Shown here one piece after another: positions 46,763-62,144 of a stretch of DNA of 64,000 nt (position 1 is the stretch's first letter; every line of letters begins with the position of its first letter). This stretch comes from Gammaproteobacteria bacterium (GTDB taxonomy: Bacteria > Pseudomonadota > Gammaproteobacteria > Nevskiales > Nevskiaceae), in NCBI GenBank assembly GCA_026398815.1, contig JAPLSA010000018.1:1-64000 (forward strand). The letters are read 5' to 3'. Made by a program: the position numbers and the translations under genes. The notes below the pieces were generated by a model that saw only the letters and a program-made list of their open reading frames with translations, was not told the DNA's origin and did no database searches.

Positions 46763-49700
46763 CTACATGTTGCGCCGGTACTCGCCGCCGACGTCGTACA
46801 GCGCGTGGCTGATCTGGCCGAGGGAGTTGTACTTCACCGCTTCGAGCAGCGCCTCGAAGATGTTGCGGCGATCACGCGCGGTCTGCTGCAGCACCTGGAG
46901 GCTGTCGGCCTTCAGCTTGTTGCGCGCGGTGCGGAAGGACGCGACGTTGTCGATCTGCTGCCCCTTCTCGTTCTCGGTCGAACGGATCAGTTCGATGGTC
47001 GTCGCGATCTCGCCGCCGTGGTCCTTCGGCAGGAAGGTGTTGACGCCGATCAGCGGCAGGCTGCCGTCGTACTTCTTGTGCTCGTAGTACAGCGACTCTT
47101 CCTGGATCTTGCCGCGCTGGTACATGGTGTCCATCGCGCCCAGCACGCCGCCGCGCTCGCTGATCGACTCGAACTCCTTGTAGACCGCTTCTTCGACGAG
47201 GTCGGTCAGCTGGTCGATGACGAAGCTGCCCTGCCAGGGGTTCTCGCAGTAGTTCAGGCCCAGCTCGCGGTTGATGATCAGCTGGATCGCGACGGCGCGA
47301 CGCACGCTTTCCTCGGTCGGCGTGGTGATCGCTTCGTCGTAGGCGTTGGTGTGCAGGCTGTTGCAGTTGTCGAACAGCGCGTACAGCGCCTGCAGCGTGG
47401 TGCGGATGTCGTTGAACTGGATTTCCTGCGCGTGCAGGGATCGGCCGGAAGTCTGGATGTGGTACTTCAGCATCTGGCTGCGTTCGTTGGCCTGATAGCG
47501 CTCGCGCATCGCCCGCGCCCAGATGCGGCGCGCCACACGGCCGATCACCGAATACTCCGGGTCCATGCCGTTGCTGAAGAAGAACGACAGGTTCGGCGCG
47601 AAGTCGTCGATCTTCATGCCGCGCGCCAGGTAGTACTCGACGAACGTGAAGCCGTTGGCCAGCGTGAAGGCGAGCTGGCTGATCGGGTTCGCGCCGGCTT
47701 CGGCGATGTGGTACCCGGAAATCGACACCGAATAGAAGTTGCGCACGCCGCGCTCGACGAACGTCTGCTGGATGTCGCCCATCATCCTGAGGGCGAATTC
47801 GGTGGAGAAGATGCAGGTGTTCTGCGCCTGGTCTTCCTTCAGGATGTCGGCCTGCACGGTGCCGCGGACGATGGCCATCGTTTCGCGCTTGATCTTGTCG
47901 TAAGTCTCGGCATCGACCAGCTGATCGCCAGTGACGCCCAGCAGCGCCAGGCCCAGCCCGTTGTTGCTGGCCGGCAGCTCGCCGGAATAGACCGGGCGCG
48001 GCTTGTCCTTGAACAGCGCGGCGATCTTCTTCTCGGCCTCCGCCCAGCGCGCGGCATCGGCCTTCAGGTACTTCTCGACCTGCTGGTCGATCGCGGTGTT
48101 CATGAACATCGCGAGGATCATCGGCGCCGGGCCGTTGATGGTCATCGACACCGAGGTGCTCGGCAGGCACAGGTCGAAGCCCGAATAGAGCTTCTTCATG
48201 TCATCGAGCGTGGCGATGTTGACGCCGGAGTTGCCGATCTTGCCGTAGATGTCCGGGCGGGTTTCCGGGTCTTCGCCGTACAGGGTCACCGAGTCGAAAG
48301 CCGTCGACAGGCGCGTCGGCATGCCCGGCTGGCTCAGATAGTGGAAGCGGCGATTGGTGCGCTCCGGCGTGCCTTCACCGGCGAACATGCGGATCGGGTC
48401 TTCGCCGACGCGGCGGTACGGATACAGGCCGGCCGTGTATGGATAGCCGCCCGGCAGGTTTTCCTTCAGCAGGAAGCGCAGCAGCTCGCCCCAGCCCTGG
48501 AACTTCGGCGCGGCGACCTTCGGGATCTTCGAGTGGCTCAAGGATTCGGTGTAGTTGTCGCCGGCCACCGGCTTGCCACGCACGTGGTAGACGTACTGCT
48601 CATCGGTCACGCCCTTGAGCCGTTCCGGCCATTCGCGCAGCAGCGCGATCGACTCCGATTTCAGGCCCTTGATCGCCTCGTTGTAACGGTTGCGCAGCAC
48701 CAGCAGGCTCTTGTCGCCGCCGGCGGCGAGATCTTCGCCAGCGTAGACATCAAGCGGCTTCGGCAGCTTCGGATCGTCGAGTTCCTTCAGCGCGTCCCAT
48801 AGCGACTGCGCGCGGTCGGCGATGTCGTGCTGCTGCTCGACCTCGCGATTGAGACCACGGCCGTTCTCGGCGATTTCGGCGAGATAGCGCGTGCGCTGAC
48901 CGGGAATCAGCACCGTGGCGCGCGGCTCCTTGACGCTGGTGTCGAGCGCCGGCGTCCAACGGTCGGCGGGCAGGCCGAGCTTGTCGCGCAGCAGGCGGCA
49001 CAGGTTGGTGAACATCCAGGTGACGCCCGGATCGTTGAACTGGCTGGCGATCGTCGGGTAGACCGGAACGTCTTCATCCTTCAGGTCGAAGCGCACGCGG
49101 TTGCGCTTCCACTGCTTGCGCACATCGCGGAGCGCGTCCTCGGCACCGCGACGGTCGAACTTGTTGAGGATGACCAGCTCGGCGTAATCGATCATGTCGA
49201 TCTTCTCGAGCTGGCTGGCCGCGCCGTAGTCGCTGGTCATCACGTAGATCGGGAAGTCGACCAGGTCGACGATTTCCGAATCGCTCTGGCCGATGCCGGC
49301 GGTTTCGACGATGACCAGGTCGTAGCTCAGGCTCTTCAGGAAGGCGATGCAGTCCTTGAGCACCGTGTTGGTCGACGCGTGCTGGCGGCGGGTGGCCATC
49401 GAACGCATGAAGGCGCGCGGGTTGCGCAGGGAATTCATGCGGATGCGGTCGCCGAGCAGCGCGCCACCGGAGCGGCGGCGGGTCGGGTCGACGGCCAGCA
49501 CGGCGATGCGCATCGTCGGGAAGGCCTGCAGGAAGCGCAGCAGCAGTTCATCGACCGCCGAAGACTTGCCGGCGCCGCCGGTGCCGGTGAAGCCGATCAC
49601 CGGCGTCTTGGCGCCGGCCACCTTCCACTCGGCGCGCAGCTGGGTCAGTTCGGCTTCGCTGAACAGATCGTCTTCCAGCGCCGACAGCCAGCGGCCAACG

Positions 49701-50212
49701 GTGATTTCGTCGTCGATCGACGCCGCCCCCGGCTTGATGCTGCCCTTGCGGTGCGTCTCGGCGCGCTTGATCAGGTCCTCGATCATGCCGACCAGGCCGA
49801 GCTTGCTGCCGTCGTTCGGGTGGTAGATACGCTCCACACCCTGCTCGTGCAGCACGGCGATCTCTTCCGGCGTGATCGTACCGCCGCCACCGCCGAACAC
49901 GCGGATGTGGCTGGCGCCGCGCTCGGCCAGCATGTCGACCATGTACTTGAAGAATTCGTTGTGGCCGCCCTGGTAGCTGGACAGGGCGATGCCGTCGGCA
50001 TCTTCCTGCAGCGCGGCGCGAACCACGTCCTCGACCGAGCGGTTGTGGCCGAGGTGGATCACCTCGGCGCCCTGGGCCTGGATCAGCCGCCGCATCACGT
50101 TGATGGCGGCATCGTGACCGTCGAACAGGCTCGCCGCCGTGACAAAGCGCAGCGGATTGCGGGTCTGGGACAGGTCGGCGTCCAGCGGCTTCAGCGAAGG
50201 GGAGTCAGGCAT
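46763..50212 (-). CDS. icmF: Fused isobutyryl-CoA mutase with G-protein chaperone
   Basis: A 1149-aa B12 enzyme. The N-terminal cobalamin domain has DGHDAA (His33 is the lower ligand); a MeaI-type GTPase follows with GTGGAGKSS and LNKFDRR; the rest is the mutase barrel. Phe610 (RMFAGEG) and Gln797 ([11 protein letters not shown]) occupy the places of Tyr and Arg in methylmalonyl-CoA mutase, the pattern of isobutyryl/butyryl-CoA mutases. It rearranges isobutyryl-CoA to butyryl-CoA and related branched acyl-CoAs. ATG 50212 starts the family sequence. Neighbours are acyl-CoA enzymes, which fits branched-chain breakdown. Confidence 0.95.
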
Positions 50213-50369
50213 GGCGAATGTCTTCGGTAATCGAAACTGGAGAACAGGCGAACCCGCCCCCGAACGAGCCGGGAACGGGTCAAGCATCATGCAGCAGACC
50301 CATGGTGCAGGCGGGTCGCCGACATTACGGAATGCCTTCCGGGGCGGTCGCCACCCGAACGGGCAGAAA

Positions 50370-51935
50370 TCAGGATTTCCCCGCGGCGGCCCGCGCCAGC
50401 TCGTCGCGCACGACGCGCTTCAGCACCTTGCCGGTCGCGGTCATCGGGAAAGCCTCAACCAGCCGCACTTCCTTCGGCACCTTGTAGCCGGCGATGTGCT
50501 GGCGGCAGTGGGCGATGATCTCGTCCTGTGTCGGCTTGTGGCCGTCGCTCGGCATGATCATGGCGACCACGCGCTCGCCCCATTTTTCGTCCGGCAGGCC
50601 GATGACGGCGCACATCCGCACACCCGGATGCTTGGCCAGCACCTGCTCGACTTCGGCTGAGTACACGTTCTCGCCGCCGGTGACGATCATGTCCTTGACC
50701 CGGTCGACCAGATACAGCAGCCCTTCGGCGTCGCGGCGTCCGGCGTCGCCGGTTTTGTACCAGCCGTCCTGGAGCACGGCGGCCGTGGTGTCCGGCTGCT
50801 TCCAGTAACCGCCAAACAGCGACGGCGCACGCACCACCAGTTCTCCGATCGCGCCTTCCGGCACCTCGTCGCCATTGGCGTCGACGAACTTGACGTCGAT
50901 CAGCGGCAGCGGCGTGCCGCAGGACTTGAGCTTGGCCTCGTCGTCGATCACATGCTGCTCCGGCCGCAGCAGCGAGATCGCACCCGAACTTTCGGTGGCG
51001 CCATAGAACTGCATGAACTTGCACTTCATCTCGCGCAGCGCGCGCGCCAGCAGATGCGAGCTGATCGGCGAGCCGGCGTACATCGCCAGCCGCAGACTGG
51101 AGAAATCGGCGGTCTTGGCATCCGGGTGGTCGAGCACCATCTGGATCGCGGTCGGCACCAGCGCGACGATCGACGGCCGATCGCGCTGGATCACCTTGAT
51201 CAGCTGACCCGGATCCAGCTGCGGCAGGATCGACAGCGTTCCGCCGTTGTACAGCGACTGGATGCTCAGGCCACTGCCGACCAGATGGAAGTTCGGCATC
51301 ACCATCATCATCACGTCGTCGTCCTGCCACTGCAGCGCCGGCTCCAGATGCTCGCAGAGCCGCATGTAGTGGAAGCCGCGATGGGTCAGCTCCACGCCCT
51401 TCGGCTTGCCGGTAGTGCCCGAGGTGTAGATCAGCAGTGCCGCCTGCTCGGCATCGAGCGGCATCCGCGGATCGACGTCCGAGACGCCCGCCAGCGCCTG
51501 ATCGAGCGCGCTGTCGGCATCGAGAGGATCAAGGCTGACGACCTTGAACGGCCTGGGGCTGATCGCCTGCACGGCTTCGATCAGCGGCGTCAGATCACGG
51601 TCGACGAACATCAGCGGCGCTTCGGCATCGGCGATCACCGCCGCCAGCTCCGGTGCGGCCAGCCGCCAGTTCATCGGCGACATCGTGCTGCCGGCCTTGT
51701 TGATGCCGAACAGCAGCTCGAAGTACAGCGATGAATTCTTGCCGAGGAAGCCGATGTTCGACCGCGCCGGAATGCCGTGGCCGAGGATGAGGTTGGCGAC
51801 GCGGTTGGAACGTTCGTCGAGCCTGGCGAAGCTGATCGCGCCGCGGCCATCGACCAGCGCGGTCTTGTCCGGCCGGGTCTTGCCGTACAGGCGGGGGATG
51901 TCGGCGAGTGTCTTGATGTCGGCATACAACCACAT
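50370..51935 (-). CDS. Fatty acyl-CoA synthetase (AMP-forming)
   Basis: Activates a carboxylic acid with ATP and CoA. The 521-aa protein has the P-loop [13 protein letters not shown], the FYGATES core motif, [10 protein letters not shown], and the C-terminal Lys in TATGKVLKR. Chain specificity cannot be read. ATG 51935 is preceded by AGGAGG. It lies 74 bp after an enoyl-CoA hydratase-like gene and 157 bp before icmF, all on the minus strand. Confidence 0.92.
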
Positions 51936-52009: not shown

Positions 52010-52798
52010 TCAGCGTCCCTTGAAATCCGGCGCCCGCTTTTCGACGAACGCGGTGATGCCCTCGCGGGCGTCGGCGCTGGCCGCGCAGCCCGACAAGGCT
52101 TGCGCCTCATCCTCCAGCTGCGATTCCAGCGGCGTGCGCAGCGCCTTGTCGATCAGGCGACGGATCTCGCCGAAGGCCCGCGTCGGCCCCTGCGCCAGCT
52201 GCCTGGCGGCCTGCTCGGCGGTATCGGCCAGGGCTGCGTCGTCGACGACGTAGTCTGCAAGCCCGGCCGTCAACGACTGGTCAGCGCTGAGCATCTCGTT
52301 GAACAGCAGGAAGCGGCGGGCGCGGGCGATGCCCATGCGCGAGGCCAGCGCGAACGAGGCGCCGGCATCGCAGGAGTAGCCGATCTGCGGGTAGGCCGCG
52401 CCGAAGCGCGCGCTCTTGCCGGCGTAGACCACGTCGCAGGCGCCGACCAGCGCCACGCCGCCACCCATGCAGATGCCGTGGACGCTGGCGATCAGCGGCG
52501 CGTTGAGGCGCTTGATGCGGGCCAGCCCCATGTGCAGGGTCGAGGTCCACTCGAGGATCTGCGTCGGCAGCATGTCGAGCTGCTCGGCGAACATGCGGAT
52601 GTCGCCACCGACCGAAAAGAACTTGCCGCGCGCCGACAGCAGCACGGCGCGGACATCGCCACGGCCCAGCAGCTCGGAGCCGACGCGGCCCATGTCGGCA
52701 CACATCTGCGCGTTGAACGGATTGCCGAGCGCCGGCTGGTTCAGCACCAGCCGCGCCAGTCCGTCTTCCACCGTCAGTTCCAGCGTTTCGTATTGCAT
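52010..52798 (-). CDS. Enoyl-CoA hydratase/isomerase family protein
   Basis: A 262-aa crotonase-fold protein with the oxyanion block HGICMGGGVALVGACD. The hydratase Glu normally found in the xPE motif is Gln here (YPQIGY), and an Asp lies in SCDAGAS, at the place of the catalytic Asp of PaaG-type isomerases. So an isomerase or unusual lyase is more likely than a classic hydratase. It starts after the terminator of the dehydrogenase unit and runs into the acyl-CoA synthetase gene. Confidence 0.87.
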   Translation of the reverse strand: MQYETLELTVEDGLARLVLNQPALGNPFNAQMCADMGRVGSELLGRGDVRAVLLSARGKFFSVGGDIRMFAEQLDMLPTQILEWTSTLHMGLARIKRLNAPLIASVHGICMGGGVALVGACDVVYAGKSARFGAAYPQIGYSCDAGASFALASRMGIARARRFLLFNEMLSADQSLTAGLADYVVDDAALADTAEQAARQLAQGPTRAFGEIRRLIDKALRTPLESQLEDEAQALSGCAASADAREGITAFVEKRAPDFKGR

Positions 52799-52949: not shown

Positions 52950-54158
52950 TCAGCCGGCCAGCCGTTTCCGGTCGGCGCCGGAGTCGATCGCCTTGACCTT
53001 TTCGTGACCCTGCTGACGACCGAACAGCGAGCGGCCAATGATCAGCTTCATCACTTCGATCGAACCGCCAGCGATCTTGACGATGCGGCAGTCGGCGAAG
53101 GCGCGCGAGATCGGGTATTCCCACATGTATCCCCAGCCGCCGAACAGCTGCAGGCACTCGTCGGCACACTTGCAGTGCAGGTTCGACAGCCACATCTTGG
53201 CCATCGCGGCGTCGACCTCGTCGAGCTCGCCGTTCATGAACTTGGTGATGCAGTGATCGGTGAACACGCGGCCGATCGTCGCCTCGGTATGCAGCTCGGC
53301 GAGCTTGAACTGGGTGTTCTGGAACGCGCCGATGGTGGTGCCGAAGGCCTTGCGGTTGGCGGTGTAGTCGACCGTCATCTCGATCAGCGTCTCGGCAACC
53401 GTGGCCGAACGGATTGCCTGGGCGAGGCGCTCCTGCGCCAGCTTGGTCATCATCAGCTTGAAGCCTTCACCTTCCTTGCCCAGCATGCAGCTGGCCGGAA
53501 TGCGCATGTCCTCGAAGAACAGCTCGGAGGTGTCCTGCGCCTTCATGCCGAGCTTTTCGAGATTCTTGCCGCGCTTGAAGCCCGGCGTCTTGGTGTCGAC
53601 CAGGAACAGGGTCACGCCCTTGGAGCCGGCGTCGCTGTCGGTCTTGGTCGCCAGCACCAGCACATCGCAGAGCTGGCCATTGGAAATGAACACCTTCTGG
53701 CCGTTGATGATGAAATCGTCGCCGTCGCGCACGGCGCGGGTGCGGATCGCCTTCAGGTCCGAACCGGCATGCGGCTCGGTCATGCCGAGGCTGCCGATGG
53801 CTTCGCCGGACACCATCTTCGGCAACCACTGCTGCTTCTGCTCTTCGGTGCCGAACGATTTCACGTAGGTGGCGACCAGATCGCAGTGGATCAGGAAACC
53901 CGGGCCGGTGAAGCCGCTGCGCGCCATTTCCTCGAACACGACGACGTCGAACAGATAGTCGAGGCCGAGGCCGCCGTACTCTTCCGGAACAGTGCAGCAG
54001 AGCATGCCGGCCGCACCCGCCTTGAGCCAGAGATCACGCGGCACGATGCCGTCATGTTCCCACTGCGCGTGGTACGGCGCGATCTCGCGTTCGATGAACT
54101 TGCGGACCGTATCGCGGAACAGTTCGTGCTCGTGGGTAAACAGGGTGCGCTTGAACAT
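52950..54158 (-). CDS. Acyl-CoA dehydrogenase, isovaleryl-type (1)
   Basis: A 402-aa FAD enzyme that oxidises an acyl-CoA to the 2-enoyl form. SLGMTEPHAGSDL is the FAD/substrate loop. The Glu near the C-terminus used by medium-chain enzymes is missing (IAGGSIEV), while ER in LAQERLAQA on helix G carries the catalytic Glu as in isovaleryl-CoA dehydrogenase. This suggests a branched substrate. A member of the shared palindrome family (54189-54206) lies upstream, so it has its own regulated promoter. Confidence 0.92.
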   Translation of the reverse strand: MFKRTLFTHEHELFRDTVRKFIEREIAPYHAQWEHDGIVPRDLWLKAGAAGMLCCTVPEEYGGLGLDYLFDVVVFEEMARSGFTGPGFLIHCDLVATYVKSFGTEEQKQQWLPKMVSGEAIGSLGMTEPHAGSDLKAIRTRAVRDGDDFIINGQKVFISNGQLCDVLVLATKTDSDAGSKGVTLFLVDTKTPGFKRGKNLEKLGMKAQDTSELFFEDMRIPASCMLGKEGEGFKLMMTKLAQERLAQAIRSATVAETLIEMTVDYTANRKAFGTTIGAFQNTQFKLAELHTEATIGRVFTDHCITKFMNGELDEVDAAMAKMWLSNLHCKCADECLQLFGGWGYMWEYPISRAFADCRIVKIAGGSIEVMKLIIGRSLFGRQQGHEKVKAIDSGADRKRLAG

Positions 54159-54188: not shown

Positions 54189-54206
54189 TCGTAGGGTACC
54201 GTACGA
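54189..54206. promoter_or_regulatory. Shared 18-bp palindrome, site C
   Basis: TCGTAGGGTACCGTACGA, 31 bp before the acyl-CoA dehydrogenase start at 54158. It follows the same form GTAnGGTrCCnTAC as the sites at 55996, 58330 and 61207. Confidence 0.65.
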
Positions 54207-54267
54207 CTATTGTAAAGCCACGCCGCCAGGCGCCGGACCAGCAGCCGGCGTCCGATGACGGCGCCGG

Positions 54268-55434
54268 TCAGTACGACTTGGGCTGGTCCAGCACCTTTTC
54301 GGCGATGAACGACAGGATCAGCTGTTCGGTGATCGGCGCGATACGGGTCACGGTGACTTCGCGCAGCAGCCGTTCGACGTGGTACTCCTTGGCGTAGCCG
54401 AAGCCGCCGAAGGTCAGCACCGCCTGCAAGCAGGCGTCGTAGCCGGCGCGCGCGCCGAGGAACTTGCCGGAGTTCGCCTCGGCGCCGCAGGGCAGCCCGT
54501 TGTCGTACAGCCATGCCGCCTTCTCGACCATCCGCTGGGCGGCTTCCAGGTACATCCACTTTTCCGCCAGCGGGTGCTGGATGCCCTGGTTCTGGCCGAT
54601 CGGGCGCCCGAAGACAACGCGTTCCCGGGCGTACTTGGACGCGCGCCGCAGCGCGTCCTGGCCGATGCCGATCGCCTCGATGCCGATCAGCACCCGTTCC
54701 GGATTCAGGCTGTGCAGGATGTAGCCGAAGCCCTTGCCTTCCTCACCGATGCGGTCGGATTCGGGAATGAACAGGTCGTCGATGAAGATCGAATTGGAGT
54801 CGACCGCCTTGCGGCCCATCTTCGGAATCTTGGTGACCGCGATCTTGCTGCGGTCGAGGTCGGTGTAAAAGATCGTGATGCCGTCGGTCGGGCGCTTGCA
54901 GTCCTCGAGCCGGGTGGTGCGCGTCAGCAGCATGATCTTGTTGGCGACCTGGGCCGTCGAGGTCCAGACCTTCTGGCCGCGCACCACGTAACCGCCGTCA
55001 ACCTTGGTCGCGAAGGTCTTGATCGCCGTGGTGTTCAAGCCGGCGTCCGGCTCGGTGAAGCCGAAGCAGCACTGGTCGGTGCCGGCGATCAGCTTCGGCA
55101 CCCAGCGCGCCTTTTGGTCCGGCGTGCCGTGAACGACGATCGGGTGCGGTCCGAACAGGTTGATGTGCACCGACGAGGTCGCCGCCATGCCGCCGCCGTG
55201 GCTGGCGATCTCATGCATCATGATCATCGCTTCTGTGACGCCGAGACCCGAGCCGCCGTACTCCTCCGGCATCGTCAATCCCAGCCAGCCGCCATCGGCC
55301 ATGGCCTTGTGGAATTCGCGCGGGAACACGCCGTCCTCGTCGCGCGCCAGCCAGTATTCATCGCCGAACGAACGAACCACGGCGCCCACGCCGTCGCGGA
55401 TCGCCTGATGATCGGGATTGATCGTGAAGTCCAT
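54268..55434 (-). CDS. Acyl-CoA dehydrogenase, isovaleryl-type (2)
   Basis: A 388-aa FAD enzyme. CFGFTEPDAGLNT is the conserved loop, and ER in LNPERVLIG gives the helix G Glu; the C-terminal Glu site reads IAPITEQ, so the medium-chain Glu is absent here too. The arrangement RVVFGRPIG is typical. It follows the MaoC gene by 63 bp. It may work on a different step or chain from the other two copies. Confidence 0.92.
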   Translation of the reverse strand: MDFTINPDHQAIRDGVGAVVRSFGDEYWLARDEDGVFPREFHKAMADGGWLGLTMPEEYGGSGLGVTEAMIMMHEIASHGGGMAATSSVHINLFGPHPIVVHGTPDQKARWVPKLIAGTDQCCFGFTEPDAGLNTTAIKTFATKVDGGYVVRGQKVWTSTAQVANKIMLLTRTTRLEDCKRPTDGITIFYTDLDRSKIAVTKIPKMGRKAVDSNSIFIDDLFIPESDRIGEEGKGFGYILHSLNPERVLIGIEAIGIGQDALRRASKYARERVVFGRPIGQNQGIQHPLAEKWMYLEAAQRMVEKAAWLYDNGLPCGAEANSGKFLGARAGYDACLQAVLTFGGFGYAKEYHVERLLREVTVTRIAPITEQLILSFIAEKVLDQPKSY

Positions 55435-55497
55435 CGGGAAAAGCTCCGGAGAGATTGAGAATTCAGGGACCAGCGGCGGCGCGTGTAGCAGCGGCGC

Positions 55498-55953
55498 TCA
55501 GGCGGCCGGCTTGCGCAGCATCAGCGCCTGGCGCTGGGTGGTGCAGATGATTTCGCCGCGCTGGTTCAAGCCTTCGTGCAGGAAGGTGACGATGCCGGCG
55601 TTCGGCCGCGACTTGGACTCGCGCACTTCCAGCACCGTGGTCCGCGAGCGGATGGTGTCGCCGGCGAACACCGGCTTCGGGAAGCGGGTGTCGGTCATGC
55701 CCAGATTGGCCACCGTGGTGCCAAGCGTGGTGTCCTGGATCGAAAGACCGATCACCAGGCCCAGCGTGAAGATCGAATTGACCAGCGGCTGGCCGAACTC
55801 GGTGCTCTTGCAGTACTCGGCGTCGATGTGGATCTGCGCCGGGTTGTAGGTGGCGCCGCAGAACCAGACGTTGTCGGATTCGGTGACCGTACGGCGGATC
55901 TCGTGCTCGATGACCCGCCCGACCGTGAACTGCTCGAAATACAGACCCGCCAT
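55498..55953 (-). CDS. MaoC-like dehydratase/hydratase
   Basis: A 151-aa hot-dog fold protein. The MaoC block is GATYNPAQIHIDAEY, but the catalytic Asp of the GDxNPxH motif is replaced, while Asn-Pro and His remain. Similar variants occur in mesaconyl- or methylmalyl-CoA hydratases, so the enzyme may hydrate a methyl-branched enoyl-CoA; this is inference. The palindrome at 55996 is 43 bp upstream, marking it as first gene of a unit with two acyl-CoA dehydrogenases. Confidence 0.82.
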   Translation of the reverse strand: MAGLYFEQFTVGRVIEHEIRRTVTESDNVWFCGATYNPAQIHIDAEYCKSTEFGQPLVNSIFTLGLVIGLSIQDTTLGTTVANLGMTDTRFPKPVFAGDTIRSRTTVLEVRESKSRPNAGIVTFLHEGLNQRGEIICTTQRQALMLRKPAA

Positions 55954-55995
55954 TGCCGACTCCCGGAAAAGGCCGGCCGATGGCCGGTGGTTATT

Positions 55996-56013
55996 TAGTA
56001 TGGTGCCATACTA
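55996..56013. promoter_or_regulatory. Shared 18-bp palindrome, site A
   Basis: TAGTATGGTGCCATACTA, arms of 8 bp with a TG centre, 43 bp before the MaoC start. The best-formed member of the family. Confidence 0.75.
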
Positions 56014-56055
56014 TCACGGCCGTCCAACGGAGCAACAGGGCCGGCGCGCCGGGCA

Positions 56056-57201
<1,146 letters not shown>

Positions 57202-57238
57202 GGGTGTTCTCGGTCAGGTGGGAAGCGGTTCAGGGCGC

Positions 57239-58213
57239 TCAGGCGCGGAAGCGGGTACCGAACGAGGCGGCCACCGCCTGGTATTCGTCGATCAGCTGGG
57301 CCGCCACTTCGGCCGTGGTCGCCGCGCGATCGACCTGTCCAACACCCTGGCCGGCGCCGTAGATGTTCTTCCACGGCTTCAGTTCGCCGTGGACATCGCT
57401 GAAGTCGATCTTGGCGGTGGACGCGATCCGGGTGTCGTCGAAGCCGGCGGCCACCAGGCTTTCCTTGAGCCAGCTGCACTGCACGCCGGTGACCGATTTG
57501 GTGGCGACCACGCCATCCATGTTGGCGCTGATCATCATTCGCCGGTAATCGTCGTTGATCATGGTTTCCGGGCAGGCGATGAAGCGCGTGCCCATGTAGA
57601 CCAGATCGGCGCCCAGCACTTCGGCGGCGAGCACGCCGCGGCCATCGGAGATCGCACCGCCGACGACGATCGTACCGTTGAAGAAGCGGCGCACCTCGGA
57701 CACGAACGCGAACGGGCTATTGGCGCCGGTGTGGCCGCCGGCGCCATGGCAGACCAGCACCAGGCCGTCGGCGCCGGCGTCGGCCGCCTTGCGCGCGTGT
57801 TCCAGCGACATCACGTCGGCGAACACCGCGCCGCCGTAGCCGTGCACCTGATCGAGCACCCGCTTCGGGCTGCCGAGCGCGGTGACGACGATGTCCGGCC
57901 GGTATTCCTGCAGCATCTCCAGCTCTTCCGGGAAGCGGTCGTAGCTGTTGTGCACCAGCACGCTCGCCGCCCAGCCGCCGGGCGTATGACCCGCTGCACG
58001 GAAGGCGGCCAGTTCATCGCGGATCTCGTCGAACCATTGGCGCAGTTGCGCCGTGGTGCGGGCGTTCTGGGTCGGCAGCGAGCCGATCAGGCCGGCCTTG
58101 CAGGATTCCAGCAGCAGCTTCGGCGTGGAGACGAGGAACATCGGGGCGACGATCACCGGCAGCTTCAGCGGCTGGCGCAGGCGGCTGGCAGTGGTCGGGG
58201 TAGCAGGGGACAT
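57239..58213 (-). CDS. Nitronate monooxygenase-like FMN oxidoreductase
   Basis: A 324-aa TIM-barrel flavoprotein of the 2-nitropropane dioxygenase family. GAGGHTGANSPFAF and GGAISDGRGVLAAEVLGAD (FMN phosphate region, then GTRFIACPE) are characteristic. True nitronate activity is not implied; in catabolic clusters such proteins often have unknown roles, including enoyl reduction. First gene of a unit with acyl-CoA dehydrogenase 3, divergent from the XylM-like gene. Confidence 0.87.
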   Translation of the reverse strand: MSPATPTTASRLRQPLKLPVIVAPMFLVSTPKLLLESCKAGLIGSLPTQNARTTAQLRQWFDEIRDELAAFRAAGHTPGGWAASVLVHNSYDRFPEELEMLQEYRPDIVVTALGSPKRVLDQVHGYGGAVFADVMSLEHARKAADAGADGLVLVCHGAGGHTGANSPFAFVSEVRRFFNGTIVVGGAISDGRGVLAAEVLGADLVYMGTRFIACPETMINDDYRRMMISANMDGVVATKSVTGVQCSWLKESLVAAGFDDTRIASTAKIDFSDVHGELKPWKNIYGAGQGVGQVDRAATTAEVAAQLIDEYQAVAASFGTRFRA

Positions 58214-58329
58214 GGCGAACTCGGGTTCCAGTGGCGGTCCGCACCGTAAGTCGTCACGGCGCAGCGGAAAAGGCCGACCCCGTAACTAAAGCCGGCGCCC
58301 GCCGTTTCCCTGGGGCAATCCCCTGCCGT

Positions 58330-58347
58330 TCGTCGCCTACCATACGA
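58330..58347. promoter_or_regulatory. Shared palindrome, site D (one good arm)
   Basis: On the minus strand TCGTATGGTAGGCGACGA: the left arm is perfect and the right is weak. It lies in the divergent region between the flavoprotein gene and the XylM-like gene, 117 bp and about 190 bp from the starts. Confidence 0.5.
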
Positions 58348-58534
58348 TCTCCGTTGACAGGGCCCAAGAACGCCCTGCTAGTATCGAAACTGAACACGGT
58401 GTTTAATTTTGTTGTGCAGTGCGTTTTCGCACCCGCAGCATCGGCACCGCGCCCCATTCGAACCTGCATGCACGGCCTCGAGCGCGCCATGCAGCGGCAA
58501 CACGGACAAACAGCAGCCTGAGGAGGCGATCACG

Positions 58535-59653
58535 ATGGACTACTTGAAATACTGGATCCCGGTCGGCGTTGTCGCCGCCGCGTTCTACGGCTTCCTTGTC
58601 GGCGGCGATGCCGTGTGGATCGGCATCCTGTCGTTCCCGGTGCTGGCCGTGCTCGACACGGTGGCCGGCCGCGACTACAGCGTCCGCAAGATGAGCAACG
58701 CGACGCTGGCCAACCTACCGATCTGGCTGTGCGCGATCGGCCCGGTCAGCCTCTACTTCGCGATGGCCTGGCGCGTCGCCCAGGGCGACCTGAGCACGAT
58801 GCAACTGGTCGGCTCGGTGCTGAGCCTGGCCTGGATGGGCGTGATCCCGCTGGTGCCGGCGGCGCATGAGCTGTACCACATGCGCGGCGCGCTGCCGCGC
58901 ACGGTCGGCCGCTACTCGCATCTGTGCATCCTCGACTGCACGCGCGACATCGGCCACGTCGTCGGCCATCACATCGACGTCGCCACGCCGGACGACGGCG
59001 ACACCGCCGCCCGCGGCACCAACCTGTATTCGTTCACCTGGAATGCGTTCCTCGAATCGACGCAGTACGCGATGAACATGGAAGCCAATGCGCTGCGCAA
59101 GAAGGGCAAGGCCCCGTACGGCATCAGCCATCGCCTGTGGCGCGCGCTGCTGGCGCTGGCGCTGTTCCACGGCGTGATCTTCCTGATCGGCGGCCCGCTG
59201 GCCAACCTCGTGGCCTTGGGCGGCCAGATCATCGCCCGCTTCTGGGTCGAGTCGTTCAACTACTTCCAACACTACGGCGTGGTGCGCCTGAAGGGCGCGC
59301 CGATCGGCCGCCGCCACCTGTGGAACCACCTCGGCTGGTTCAGCCGCGTGATGGCGTTCGAGATCACCAACCACGCCGACCATCACCTGAACTCGTATCA
59401 GGTCTATTACAAGCTGGTGCCGCACAAGGAAGCGATCACCATGCCGAGCGTGTTCGTCTGCTTCCTCGCCGCGCTGGTGCCGCCGCTCTGGCACAACATG
59501 ATCATCAAGCCGGCGCTGAAGCGCTGGGACCTGGAGTTCGCGACCCGCGAGGAACGCGCGCTTGCCGCCGAGCAGAACCGCAAGGCCGGCTGGCCGGACT
59601 GGCAGAACGAGCCGGGCGCCGAAGTCGGCCGCGCAGCAACGGTCGGCGTCTGA
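58535..59653 (+). CDS. XylM-like membrane diiron monooxygenase
   Basis: A 372-aa hydroxylase with the AlkB/XylM histidine clusters: HELYH (111-115), HVVGHH (141-146), NYFQHYG (242-248) and NHADHH (279-284). The NYFQHYG form and general layout match xylene monooxygenase XylM rather than alkane AlkB (NYxEHYG), so the target may be the methyl group of an alkyl-aromatic or terpene such as p-cymene. Hydrophobic helices flank the clusters. ATG 58535 has GAGGAGG upstream. No ferredoxin or reductase partner lies nearby. A divergent promoter with site D lies upstream. Confidence 0.9.
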   Translation: MDYLKYWIPVGVVAAAFYGFLVGGDAVWIGILSFPVLAVLDTVAGRDYSVRKMSNATLANLPIWLCAIGPVSLYFAMAWRVAQGDLSTMQLVGSVLSLAWMGVIPLVPAAHELYHMRGALPRTVGRYSHLCILDCTRDIGHVVGHHIDVATPDDGDTAARGTNLYSFTWNAFLESTQYAMNMEANALRKKGKAPYGISHRLWRALLALALFHGVIFLIGGPLANLVALGGQIIARFWVESFNYFQHYGVVRLKGAPIGRRHLWNHLGWFSRVMAFEITNHADHHLNSYQVYYKLVPHKEAITMPSVFVCFLAALVPPLWHNMIIKPALKRWDLEFATREERALAAEQNRKAGWPDWQNEPGAEVGRAATVGV

Positions 59654-59668
59654 TCCCGGCCTGATGCG

Positions 59669-59702
59669 AAAAAGGCGGCGTCCTTCGGGACGCCGCCTTT
59701 TT
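59669..59702. terminator. Bidirectional terminator between XylM-like and TetR genes
   Basis: AAAAAGGCGGCGTCC-TTCG-GGACGCCGCCTTTTT, with A- and T-runs on both sides; it serves the convergent hydroxylase and TetR genes. Confidence 0.93.
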
Positions 59703-59752
59703 CATGTCCGCCGGAGGTTCCGGCGCTGCGGTACAAGCGCTGCTTTCGGGCT

Positions 59753-60403
59753 TCAGGATTTCTCGTCGGCGAAGATCGCGCTGGCGCAGATGTCGGCCAC
59801 CGCCTTGATCAGCCGTTCCAGCGCTTCGCCCTCGCGCAAGGGGCTGAAGCGGCCAAGGTAGGTGACGACGAACCAGGACAGCGCATCGGCCACGTCATCG
59901 CCGGTGCCGGGCCGGCAGCCGCCGCTGCGGTTGACTGCTGCGATCGCGGCCCGGCAGCGGCCGCAGATGGTGTCCATCATCTTCTGGAACTGCTGGCCGA
60001 GCGCATCGTCCTGCCGGGCGCTGTCGGCGAACGCCGACAGGATCGCCCGATGCTTCCGGAACGTGCGGCTGACACCGACCATGGTCGTCTGCATTTCCTC
60101 GCGCCGCGGCCGCTGGCCACCGGGATCGGGGCCCAGCCAGTTGCCGGCGCTGTCGACGATCTCGTCGGTGATCAGCGCCATCAGCCGGGCGATCAGCTCG
60201 TTCTTGTCGCGGAAGTGCGAATAGAAGGTGCCGCGCGACATGCCGGCCTCGGCGGCCAGCTCCTCGACCGACAGCGACACATAACGCTGGCCCTGCTCCA
60301 GCATCCGCTCCATCGCCGCCAGCAGGCGCTCCTCGATGGTCAGCTTCTTGCCGCCATGCTTGGAACGGGTGCGGCGCGTGGGACGGGGTGCAATCGGCAG
60401 CAT
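59753..60403 (-). CDS. TetR-family regulator (1)
   Basis: A 216-aa repressor. A basic N-terminal arm leads into the helix-turn-helix LSVEELAAEAGMSRGTFYSHF (LSVEELAAEAG, MSRGTFYSHF). The ligand domain follows with no recognisable specificity; it has a Cys pair ICGRC. It may be one of two regulators of this catabolic region. It has no palindrome of the shared family next to it. Confidence 0.85.
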   Translation of the reverse strand: MLPIAPRPTRRTRSKHGGKKLTIEERLLAAMERMLEQGQRYVSLSVEELAAEAGMSRGTFYSHFRDKNELIARLMALITDEIVDSAGNWLGPDPGGQRPRREEMQTTMVGVSRTFRKHRAILSAFADSARQDDALGQQFQKMMDTICGRCRAAIAAVNRSGGCRPGTGDDVADALSWFVVTYLGRFSPLREGEALERLIKAVADICASAIFADEKS

Positions 60404-60460
60404 TCGGCTTTTCGTCAGGCGGGCGGACAGACAACGCGAGTGTAGCGTCCGCAGCCCGCT

Positions 60461-61147
60461 TCAGGCCGTCTTGCGCCAGGCCCGGGTGAACAGCGTGACC
60501 AGCGATTCCACCCAGCGACGCCGGCTTGCCGGATGCCGTCCGGGTGTCAGCAGCACATAGCGGCCGGCGCCGCTGGCCAGCCCGGAAATCTGCGCCGCCG
60601 CGTCGTACGGCGAATCGAGATCGACCTGCCCGGCATCCTTGAGCCGCTGCAGGTAGGCCACCAGCGGCGCCGACACCTGCGCGGAATCGTCGAGCATCGC
60701 CCGCCCCAGCTTCGGGAAACGGCCGGCCTCGGCGATCACCATCCGCATCACCGCCAGGTACTCCGGATGCGTGTAGCCGTCGTAAAGCTTGCTGATGATC
60801 TGCCGCAACGCGGCTTCCAGCGGCACGCCGGCATCGGCCACCGTTCCCAGCCGCTCGCGGACGCCCAGCTGGGCGCGCCGCGCCACTTCGACGAACAGCT
60901 GCTCCTTGCTTTCGTAATGCCGGTACAGCGTGATCTTGGCGACGCCGGCCGCGCGTGCGATGCCCGCCATGCTGGCGGCCTCGAAGCCGCGGGCGATGAA
61001 TACCGACAACGCGGCGTCGAGGATGGCCTTGCGCAAGGCCTCGCCTTCTTCCCGCGTCGGCCGGCCACGGGTCCGGCGTTGCACGCCCGCTATGGCCTGG
61101 CTGTCGATCGGTGGGGGAGCGGCCGTCATGGCGTGATCATGCGACAT
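60461..61147 (-). CDS. TetR-family regulator (2), likely regulator of the shared palindromes
   Basis: About 228 aa with helix-turn-helix MAGIARAAGVAKITLYRHY and a C-terminal ligand domain of the AefR/TetR_C type. The start is uncertain: ATG 61147 and ATG 61129 are both without a good ribosome site. A perfect-arm palindrome (61207-61224) lies 60 bp upstream in the divergent promoter with an SDR gene, the usual place for an autoregulated TetR. I infer that this protein binds all four sites. Confidence 0.82.
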   Translation of the reverse strand: MSHDHAMTAAPPPIDSQAIAGVQRRTRGRPTREEGEALRKAILDAALSVFIARGFEAASMAGIARAAGVAKITLYRHYESKEQLFVEVARRAQLGVRERLGTVADAGVPLEAALRQIISKLYDGYTHPEYLAVMRMVIAEAGRFPKLGRAMLDDSAQVSAPLVAYLQRLKDAGQVDLDSPYDAAAQISGLASGAGRYVLLTPGRHPASRRRWVESLVTLFTRAWRKTA

Positions 61148-61206
61148 CGCGCGGCGCCGCCGCAGCACTCATTGCGAGGCATCGCATTGAAGCGTCGCCG
61201 CGAATA

Positions 61207-61224
61207 TCGTATGGTGCCATATCA
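61207..61224. promoter_or_regulatory. Shared palindrome, site B, in the TetR-SDR divergent promoter
   Basis: TCGTATGGTGCCATATCA, with core GTATGGTGCCATAT, 27 bp upstream of the SDR start and 60 bp from the TetR start. Confidence 0.72.
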
Positions 61225-61250: not shown

Positions 61251-62144
61251 ATGGCGCTTTACTCGTCGGATGCACTGGCTGGCAAACGCATCCTCGTCAC
61301 CGGCGGCGGCACCGGCCTCGGCAAGGGCATGGCGAGACATTTCGCGGCGCTCGGTGCCCACGTCCACCTCTGGGGGCGGCGCATCGACGTGCTGGAGGCC
61401 GCCGCCGCCGAAATCAATGCCGAACACGCCAGCCCGCGCGCCTTCGTGCAGACCGTCGACATCCGCAAGGCCGAGCTGGTCGATGCCGCGGTCGGCGAGA
61501 TCTTCGAGAAGTTCGGCCCGCTGACCGGCCTGGTCAACAACGCCGCCGCCAACTTCATCGCCCCGACCAAGGACTTGTCGCCGCGCGGCTTCGAGGCCAT
61601 CACCTCGACAGTGATGAACGGCGGCTTCTTCACCACCCACGCGGTGGCCAAGCGCTGGATCGCGCAGGGCTTGCCGGGCTCGGTGGTGTCGACCCTGGTG
61701 ACCTGGATCTGGACCGGCTCGGCCTATGTGGTGCCGAGCGCGATGGCCAAAGCGGCGATCAATGCGATGACCATGTCGCTGGCCGTGGAGTGGGCGAAGT
61801 ACGGCATCCGCCTGAACGCCGTGGCGCCGGGCCCGTTCCCGACCGAGTACGCCTGGCAGATGCTGTCGCCGACCGGCGACGCTGCGGTCGGCGCGACGCA
61901 GGCCGACGAAGTGCCGGCTGGCCGCTACGGCCGGATCGAGGAACTGGGCAACCTGATGACCCTGCTGATGAGCGATGGCGCCGACTACATCACCGGCGAA
62001 ACCATCTGCATCGACGGCGGCCATCATCTGGCTGCGCCCTCGACCTTCGCCGGCCTGAACAAGCTCGACGACGCAGCCTGGGCCAAGATCAGGGAAGCGG
62101 CGCAGGCCGCGACCCAGGCCAGCAAGGCCCAGCGCTCGGTCTGA
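61251..62144 (+). CDS. 2,4-dienoyl-CoA reductase-like SDR
   Basis: A 297-aa SDR with VTGGGTGLGKGMARHF. Where classical SDRs have Tyr-x-x-x-Lys it has SAMAKAAIN, i.e. no Tyr in the motif, and the following LAVEWAKYGIRLNAVAPGPF is as in DECR-type enzymes. These reduce 2,4-dienoyl-CoA esters with NADPH in breakdown of unsaturated acids. Site B is in its promoter and a terminator follows. The molybdopterin gene downstream has its own spacing of 160 bp. Confidence 0.85.
   Translation: MALYSSDALAGKRILVTGGGTGLGKGMARHFAALGAHVHLWGRRIDVLEAAAAEINAEHASPRAFVQTVDIRKAELVDAAVGEIFEKFGPLTGLVNNAAANFIAPTKDLSPRGFEAITSTVMNGGFFTTHAVAKRWIAQGLPGSVVSTLVTWIWTGSAYVVPSAMAKAAINAMTMSLAVEWAKYGIRLNAVAPGPFPTEYAWQMLSPTGDAAVGATQADEVPAGRYGRIEELGNLMTLLMSDGADYITGETICIDGGHHLAAPSTFAGLNKLDDAAWAKIREAAQAATQASKAQRSV

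What the first reader, a model, noticed from the sequence alone, without database searches (positions are those of the whole stretch)
54189..61224. Four matching 18-bp palindromes point to one TetR regulon
TAGTATGGTGCCATACTA (55996), TCGTATGGTGCCATATCA (61207), TCGTAGGGTACCGTACGA (54189) and a one-armed TCGTATGGTA (58330) all fit TCGTATGGTRCCATACGA. They sit at promoters of MaoC-ACAD-ACAD, the SDR/TetR pair, ACAD 1 and the flavoprotein/XylM divergence. One is beside a TetR gene (60461-61147), the classical autoregulator position. This would tie hydroxylase, acyl-CoA enzymes and regulator into one pathway that I cannot assign to a known regulon.
Basis: partly seen in the sequence, partly recalled or inferred. 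Interest (0 to 1): 0.78.

Follow-up and report, generated by a model that had tools for sequence, protein, structure and literature searches.

The report
Shared operator, likely of MarR repressor
The repeated palindrome is very probably a real switch site in front of a large set of hydrocarbon- and fat-breakdown genes, but the protein that reads it is more likely a MarR-type repressor found nearby than the TetR regulator that first seemed the obvious candidate.

Summary
Three of the four palindromes are real. The own genome (4.30 Mb) holds 11 sites at up to 2 mismatches, and 0 for the reversed control. They lie at acyl-CoA dehydrogenase, MaoC, SDR/TetR, enoyl-CoA hydratase, CitE/HMGS-like, oxygenase-reductase, aldehyde dehydrogenase, ETF-QO and lipid-storage genes, so the regulon is larger than claimed.

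The one-armed fourth site is degenerate and poorly conserved. The hydroxylase promoter carries a different palindrome, TGAACANNNTGTTCA, which tracks the second TetR gene.

TetR-1 is probably not the main reader. In 58 family genomes all 13 with TetR-1 have the palindrome, but 7 more have it without TetR-1. A MarR-family gene in the same cluster (C1:99681-100259, outside the window) fits better: 18 of 20 palindrome genomes carry it, and 1 genome has MarR without a close palindrome. The palindrome stays at the SDR gene where TetR-1 is absent or has moved, and lies just upstream of several MarR copies. Homologous MarR cassettes in two betaproteobacteria, with no TetR found in the stretches fetched, keep weaker copies at corresponding genes.

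Exceptions exist on both sides. No binding was tested. The substrate is unknown.

The parts
54189..54206 (.). Palindrome TCGTAGGGTACCGTACGA, 31 bp upstream of the ACAD1 start
   Evidence: window; genome; distance; ACAD1 sites in 8 other genomes
55996..56013 (.). Palindrome TAGTATGGTGCCATACTA, 43 bp upstream of the MaoC start
   Evidence: site at MaoC also in G002, G007, G010, G017, G035
61207..61224 (.). Palindrome TCGTATGGTGCCATATCA between TetR-1 (60 bp) and SDR (27 bp)
   Evidence: present in 12 of 13 TetR-1 loci and at SDR promoters without adjacent TetR-1
58330..58347 (.). Claimed one-armed site TCGTCGCCTACCATACGA (4 mismatches): degenerate, probably not functional
   Evidence: one-armed also in G014, 2-mismatch site in G010, not found in G016, G002, G009, G007
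58391..58405 (.). Second palindrome TGAACACGGTGTTTA (TGAACANNNTGTTCA), 130 bp upstream of the XylM-like gene; proposed TetR-2 operator
   Evidence: in 6 of 6 XylM-like promoters examined beside TetR-2; 0 of 9 copies (70-88% identity, 7 genomes) without a close TetR-2, at up to 2 mismatches
46763..50290 (-). Fused B12-dependent acyl-CoA mutase (IcmF-like: B12-binding, MeaB, mutase)
   Evidence: Pfam; IcmF name recalled
50370..51935 (-). Acyl-CoA ligase (AMP-binding)
   Evidence: Pfam
52010..52798 (-). Enoyl-CoA hydratase
   Evidence: Pfam
52950..54158 (-). ACAD1, acyl-CoA dehydrogenase
   Evidence: Pfam
54268..55434 (-). ACAD2, acyl-CoA dehydrogenase
   Evidence: Pfam
55498..55953 (-). MaoC-like hydratase
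   Evidence: Pfam
56056..57201 (-). ACAD3, acyl-CoA dehydrogenase
   Evidence: Pfam
57239..58213 (-). NMO-like flavoprotein
   Evidence: Pfam
58535..59653 (+). AlkB/XylM-type membrane hydroxylase
   Evidence: Pfam FA_desaturase; closest solved chain alkane 1-monooxygenase 8sbb, E 1.9e-22; XylM name recalled
59753..60403 (-). TetR-2 regulator
   Evidence: Pfam TetR_N
60461..61147 (-). TetR-1 regulator
   Evidence: Pfam TetR_N and TetR_C_7
61251..62144 (+). SDR; best NCBIfam model 2,4-dienoyl-CoA reductase (230 bits, below its cut-off of 318)

Best explanation
The palindrome, core TNGTATGGNNCCATACNA with A/T-rich flanks, is most likely the operator of a MarR-family repressor encoded in the same cluster (C1:99681-100259, 36 kb right of the window). 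The proposed mechanism: a MarR dimer sits on the site at or near the promoters of a hydrocarbon/acyl-CoA regulon and blocks transcription. A pathway intermediate, probably a CoA thioester, releases it. Because marR lies third in an HMGS-like/thiolase/marR run behind a palindrome, it would be autoregulated. TetR-1 and TetR-2 would be lineage-specific extra regulators inside the regulon, with TetR-2 probably acting on TGAACANNNTGTTCA at the hydroxylase gene. Shown by computation: the sites, the genes beside them, their conservation and their co-occurrence with MarR. Inferred: binding, repression, operon structure, the ligand and the roles of the TetRs.
For: 11 genomic sites versus 0 in the reversed control. 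93 of 114 sites (up to 2 mismatches, 18 genomes) lie outside called genes versus 12.7% of random positions, and 100 of 114 have a gene start within 350 bp versus 32%. A/T preference extends 4 bp beyond the searched pattern on each side, compatible with MarR wings in the adjacent minor grooves (wing contacts: review PMC5487221, passages seen; the A/T link is my inference). 58 family genomes: MarR and palindrome 18, palindrome only 2, MarR only 1, neither 37 (phi 0.88); TetR-1: 13/7/0/38 (phi 0.74). G066 has MarR and 6 palindromes while the other 10 genomes of its genus have neither. MarR lies 2.87-2.98 kb behind the CitE/HMGS palindrome in G000 and in G002, G007, G009, G013, G014, G015. A palindrome lies about 0.1-0.3 kb upstream of the matched stretch of MarR copies in G066 and in G012, G030, G002, G017. 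The helix stretch VGKASLG is in 24 of 28 aligned MarR copies. The palindrome is at the SDR gene without adjacent TetR-1 in G030, G066 and G002. Betaproteobacterial plasmid cassettes with MarR (50-55% identity) have 7 sites at up to 3 mismatches, 7 of 7 outside listed genes, among them at the homologues of ACAD1 (80% identical), MaoC (64%) and HMGS-like (50%); in two of the three stretches I also searched for TetR helices and found none.
Against: No binding data. MarR, TetR-1 and the sites all travel with the pathway, so co-occurrence does not prove which protein binds, and genomes are related, so counts are not independent. G010 and G063 have palindromes but no MarR at E<=1e-40 (G010, 88% complete, also lacks the neighbouring HMGS-like gene and has a 42% MarR on the same contig as sites; in G063 the contig ends 1.2 kb past the thiolase with no MarR called). 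G011 and, outside the family, G052 have MarR but no site at up to 1 mismatch; G011 shows 3-mismatch versions at two expected promoters. No site at up to 2 mismatches was seen in the fetched pieces within 6 kb of MarR in G021, G032 and for one of two MarR copies of G030, and G030's HMGS-like promoter has only a 4-mismatch version. In betaproteobacteria the count (7 versus about 2.1 in shuffles) is only a modest excess and the sites are weak (one at 2, six at 3 mismatches). Three alphaproteobacterial MarR loci have none at up to 3. In G005 and G017 the site stays with TetR-1 opposite a gene that is not the SDR.
Confidence: 0.74

Rival explanations
1. TetR-1 is the main reader: it represses its own divergent promoter and the other palindrome-bearing promoters.
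For: The palindrome lies in the TetR-1 promoter in 12 of 13 orthologous loci; all 13 TetR-1 genomes of 58 carry palindromes; by eye I noticed no other palindrome in the TetR-1/SDR gap; in G005 and G017 it stays with TetR-1 although the gene opposite is not the SDR.
Against: 7 of 20 palindrome genomes lack TetR-1 at E<=1e-50. In G002 TetR-1 has moved and has no site at up to 4 mismatches within about 420 bp, while the SDR elsewhere keeps one. TetR-3, with a different recognition helix, has the palindrome upstream in 4 genomes.
Confidence: 0.1
2. Two or more regulators of different superfamilies (MarR plus TetR-1, and TetR-3 in relatives) read the same operator, so the regulon integrates two signals or has changed hands between regulators.
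For: MarR, TetR-1 and TetR-3 genes all sit beside the same palindrome in different genomes.
Against: The TetR genes could simply be regulon members; at TetR-3 no site at up to 3 mismatches is seen in G012, G031 and G035; sharing one 18-bp operator between MarR and TetR would be unusual (recalled).
Confidence: 0.11
3. Another, unidentified regulator reads the site and MarR is only a passenger of the cassette.
For: G063 has three sites but neither MarR nor TetR-1 was found; not every regulator in these genomes was screened.
Against: MarR fits 18 of 20 palindrome genomes and has sites near its own gene in several.
Confidence: 0.05

Closest known systems
CouR / FerC / HcaR-type MarR repressors of CoA-dependent catabolism (review PMC5487221, passages seen; CouR paper PMC4737184, start of abstract in the search listing)
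   Same: MarR-family protein, palindromic operators at catabolic promoters, autoregulatory placement, CoA-ester chemistry in the pathway
   Different: Those act on hydroxycinnamate genes; here 11 scattered sites reach a reductase, beta-oxidation-like steps, ETF-QO and lipid storage; sequence kinship to solved MarR proteins is family level
AmeABCD monoterpene efflux island of Castellaniella defragrans (PMC6394551, passages seen)
   Same: DUF1302, DUF1329 and RND genes beside a CoA-dependent catabolic cluster
   Different: That study describes efflux; its text has no word beginning 'regulator'; its proteins were not compared with ours; substrate here unknown
MarR cassettes on plasmids of Azoarcus sp. 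KH32C and Diaphorobacter sp. HDW4B
   Same: MarR 50-55% identical; homologous ACAD, MaoC, CitE, HMGS-like and thiolase genes (45-85% identity), DUF1302/DUF1329/MMPL genes annotated
   Different: Operators weaker (2-3 mismatches); no hydroxylase annotated in the stretches fetched
KstR, PsrA and FadR TetR regulons
   Same: TetR repressors of lipid breakdown with palindromic operators (recalled)
   Different: TetR-1 scores far below the NCBIfam cut-offs of KstR (33 of 280), PsrA of Vibrio (21 of 300) and Bacillus FadR (37 of 200)

Membership tests
MarR family | MarR winged-helix domain above the curated cut-off | tested here: met
   MarR_2 55.5 bits (cut-off 27), MarR 49.6 (24.6)
MarR family | Palindromic operator at its own promoter or the promoter of its gene run | tested here: met
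   Palindrome 2.9 kb upstream in 7 genomes; close by in G066, G012, G030, G002, G017; not seen in fetched pieces of G021, G032; 0 at three alphaproteobacterial loci
CouR-like CoA-thioester-responsive repressors | Release from DNA by a pathway CoA thioester | not testable with these tools
   needs protein and ligand
TetR-1 regulon | TetR domain | tested here: met
   TetR_N 64.4 bits (cut-off 24)
TetR-1 regulon | Operator beside the regulator gene | tested here: met
   12 of 13 loci
TetR-1 regulon | Operator set present only where the regulator is present | tested here: not met
   7 of 20 palindrome genomes lack TetR-1
KstR / PsrA / Bacillus FadR | Score above the curated equivalog cut-off | tested here: not met
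TetR-2 operator TGAACANNNTGTTCA | Presence at the hydroxylase promoter follows presence of TetR-2 | tested here: met
   6 of 6 versus 0 of 9 copies at up to 2 mismatches; G013, which also has TetR-2, was not examined for this; binding untested

The most novel reading that the evidence does not exclude
One 18-bp operator is read by repressors of two unrelated superfamilies (MarR in most carriers; TetR-1 or TetR-3 added in some lineages), so a regulon keeps its sites while its regulators are added, moved or replaced.
Probability: 0.17. Interest if true: 0.65.

Novelty: new member of a known kind. Interest (0 to 1): 0.45.

Why it matters
It gives a testable operator, regulator and gene list for a hydroxylation/beta-oxidation-like pathway, found here in 20 of 58 family genomes and in related plasmid cassettes, that also reaches ETF-QO and lipid-storage genes. 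It also shows that the regulator gene next to a palindrome need not be its reader: comparing genomes that lack each candidate pointed to a different protein 38 kb away.

Tried and rejected
Rejected: TetR-1 as sole reader (7 of 20 palindrome genomes lack it). TetR-2 as reader of the main palindrome: no match at E<=1e-15 in G005, G007 or G015, which carry sites, and only 30% identity in G006. TetR-3 as universal reader: the own genome has only a 36% relative. The 58330 half-site as a true site.

Led nowhere: genome-contig scan with TetR-1 gave 23 loci; the two best are 32% identical over most of the protein and none is a close relative. Paper searches for the motif or regulon listed nothing I judged relevant from titles and abstract starts, so 'not described' rests on those five searches of an open-access library only. 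The promoter scan found 1 site versus 0.8 expected, uninformative. Substrate assignment failed; a terpenoid-like or branched hydrocarbon is a guess from the AmeABCD resemblance. No structure prediction was run.

Caveats: genes outside the window come from a simple ORF and codon-composition caller of mine, so starts may be off; 14 of 114 sites had no called start within 350 bp. The target count for 'SDR' mixes orthologues with 31-35% SDR relatives and is not used. For the hydroxylase comparison I dropped one cut fragment (L115:62-541, 159 aa) and one 58% copy of G030; one of the 9 negatives (G007) has a 3-mismatch chance-like match. 'HMGS-like' is a recalled name: that protein had no Pfam match at 1e-8; its plasmid homologues (47-50%) are annotated as KAS III C-terminal-domain proteins. 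The plasmid gene tables are incomplete, so 'outside listed genes' may miss a gene.
Full report
Observation. The three full palindromes are present at the stated places, and the window shuffles expect almost none (mean 0.03). Whole genome: TNGTATGGNNCCATACNA at up to 2 mismatches gives 11 sites and none for the reversed pattern. Eight lie on contig C1 (54189, 55996, 61207, 73185, 77193, 94227, 96756, 102605); the others are C22:8426, C13:53074 and C11:48827.

What the sites serve. 54189: ACAD1, followed by enoyl-CoA hydratase, acyl-CoA ligase and a fused B12 mutase. 55996: MaoC and ACAD2. 61207: SDR and TetR-1/TetR-2. 73185: alpha/beta hydrolase, then glycerol-3-phosphate acyltransferase, glycerol-3-phosphate dehydrogenase, wax ester synthase/DGAT and another hydrolase. 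77193: two divergent enoyl-CoA hydratases. 94227: region of DUF1329, DUF1302 and MMPL genes (no start called within 350 bp). 96756: CitE-like lyase and CoA transferase genes on one side; HMGS-like (recalled name), thiolase and MarR on the other. 102605: a ferredoxin-reductase like the partner of a XylM hydroxylase (XylA-like, recalled name). C22: ETF-QO, with an ETF subunit gene behind it. C13: aldehyde dehydrogenase. C11: inositol-monophosphatase family gene, the least obvious. Operon membership is inferred from gene order.

Conservation. In the 58 family genomes that one search examined, 20 carry at least one site at up to 1 mismatch. In fetched loci of 18 genomes I counted 114 sites at up to 2 mismatches: 93 outside called genes (random 12.7%) and 100 with a gene start within 350 bp (random 32%). 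HMGS-like has the site in 11 of these 18 genomes, ACAD1 in 9, the hydrolase/lipid run in 9, CitE in 8, the XylA-like reductase in 7. Loci were fetched only in part, so these are lower bounds. Flanks outside the searched pattern show A/T preference for four bases on each side.

Which protein reads it. TetR-1 orthologues (58-86% identity in the 12 relatives) occur in 13 of 58 genomes counting the own one, all with palindromes, but 7 palindrome genomes lack TetR-1 at E<=1e-50: G012, G015, G030, G031, G035, G063, G066. A MarR gene at C1:99681-100259 was found while looking for what these share. At E<=1e-40 it is in 19 of 58 genomes, 18 of them with palindromes; exceptions are G010 and G063 (sites, no MarR) and G011 (MarR, no site at up to 1 mismatch). 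Fisher p is 8e-12 for MarR and 2e-8 for TetR-1, but genomes are related, so only the comparison is meaningful. G010's assembly lacks the HMGS-like neighbour too, and G011 has 3-mismatch versions at the expected CitE/HMGS and reductase promoters. Outside the family, G052 has MarR but no site at up to 1 mismatch.

Locus tests. In G030 and G066 the SDR orthologue (77-78%) keeps a palindrome in front although no TetR-1 was found there. In G002 TetR-1 has no site within about 420 bp, while the SDR, now elsewhere, keeps one. Against this, in G005 and G017 the site stays with TetR-1 opposite a different gene. TetR-3, another TetR with recognition region VVDGTIYRYF instead of VAKITLYRHY, also has the palindrome upstream in G002, G007, G014 and G017, though not in G012, G031 and G035. 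So two different TetR helices sit beside one operator, whereas VGKASLG is in 24 of 28 aligned MarR copies. MarR lies 2.87-2.98 kb behind the CitE/HMGS palindrome in G000 and six relatives, and MarR copies in G066 and in G012, G030, G002 and G017 have a palindrome 0.1-0.3 kb upstream of the matched stretch. In G021 and G032 none was seen near MarR in the pieces fetched, and G030's HMGS-like promoter has only a 4-mismatch version.

Outside the family. MarR relatives on plasmids of Azoarcus sp. KH32C (50.5% identity), Diaphorobacter sp. HDW4B (55%) and Paraburkholderia sp. PGU19 (54%) were fetched. The first two carry homologous genes: ACAD1 80 and 62%, ACAD2 85 and 63%, MaoC 77 and 64%, thiolase 66 and 75%, HMGS-like 47 and 50%, and no TetR helix was found in them by my profile at E<=1e-3. 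Across the three there are 7 sites at up to 3 mismatches (one at 2), all 7 outside listed genes; six precede cassette genes or MarR and the seventh precedes a transglutaminase-family gene; shuffles expect about 2.1 and the reversed pattern gives 0. They include the ACAD1 homologue of Azoarcus (41 bp) and the MaoC (37 bp) and HMGS-like (55 bp) homologues of Diaphorobacter. Three alphaproteobacterial MarR loci (39-46% identity) have none.

The hydroxylase promoter. The half-site at 58330 is not conserved. A different palindrome, TGAACANNNTGTTCA, lies at 58391-58405. It is present in 6 of 6 XylM-like promoters examined where TetR-2 (83-100% identity) is next door (G000, G010, G014, G016, G002, G009; three perfect), and at up to 2 mismatches in 0 of 9 copies of 70-88% identity in 7 genomes without a close TetR-2. 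G007 is the best control: its hydroxylase is 87.6% identical, it has no TetR-2 at E<=1e-15 and no such palindrome. The six are also close relatives, so this is suggestive only. Of six more distant hydroxylase paralogues (50-52%), three (G012, G031, G035) carry the main palindrome 107-124 bp upstream and three (G007, G002, G014) do not.

Mechanism. Most likely a MarR repressor, released by a pathway intermediate, with autoregulation, in the manner of CouR and FerC (PMC5487221, passages seen). By eye, the 61207 site overlaps a possible -10 of the SDR promoter (TTGAAG, 17 bases, TATGGT), and the scan's one promoter-like hit overlaps the 54189 site (not above chance). The substrate is unknown; DUF1302/DUF1329/RND genes recall the AmeABCD monoterpene efflux system (PMC6394551, passages seen).

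Verdict.

Noticed in passing
58391-58405: Second conserved palindrome TGAACANNNTGTTCA upstream of the XylM-like hydroxylase; follows presence of TetR-2.
   Followed up: partly
L085:5412-13091 (C1:65412-73091): Lipid-storage run (GPAT, glycerol-3-phosphate dehydrogenase, WS/DGAT, hydrolases) behind the same palindrome as the catabolic genes.
   Followed up: partly
L089:8426-8443 (C22): Same palindrome 103 bp upstream of ETF-QO, the general electron outlet of acyl-CoA dehydrogenases.
   Followed up: partly
L086:13392-14783 (C1:92392-93783): A DUF1329 gene seems to fall into two ORFs (only the 298-aa one has a Pfam match); may be a frameshift, an assembly error or a gene-calling artefact.
   Followed up: no
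L103, L108, L120, L132, L133: In relatives, TetR-3 lies beside 2-hydroxyacyl-CoA-dehydratase-like and BcrA-like genes; in four of these five loci with the same palindrome just upstream. TetR-3 has only a 36% relative in this genome.
   Followed up: partly
L091:9827-9844 (C11:48827): Site upstream of an inositol-monophosphatase gene; a similar site (TGGTATCGCACCATACGA) occurs in G010 (C10:36650), whose neighbouring genes were not examined.
   Followed up: no
L179: Sphingopyxis macrogoltabida plasmid carries a homologous ACAD/SDR/thiolase/MaoC/CitE/MarR cassette and an alkane 1-monooxygenase 56% identical to the XylM-like protein, without the palindrome at up to 3 mismatches in the stretch fetched.
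   Followed up: partly
46763-50290: Fused B12-dependent acyl-CoA mutase (IcmF-like) at the end of the ACAD1 run, suggesting a branched short-chain acyl-CoA product.
   Followed up: no
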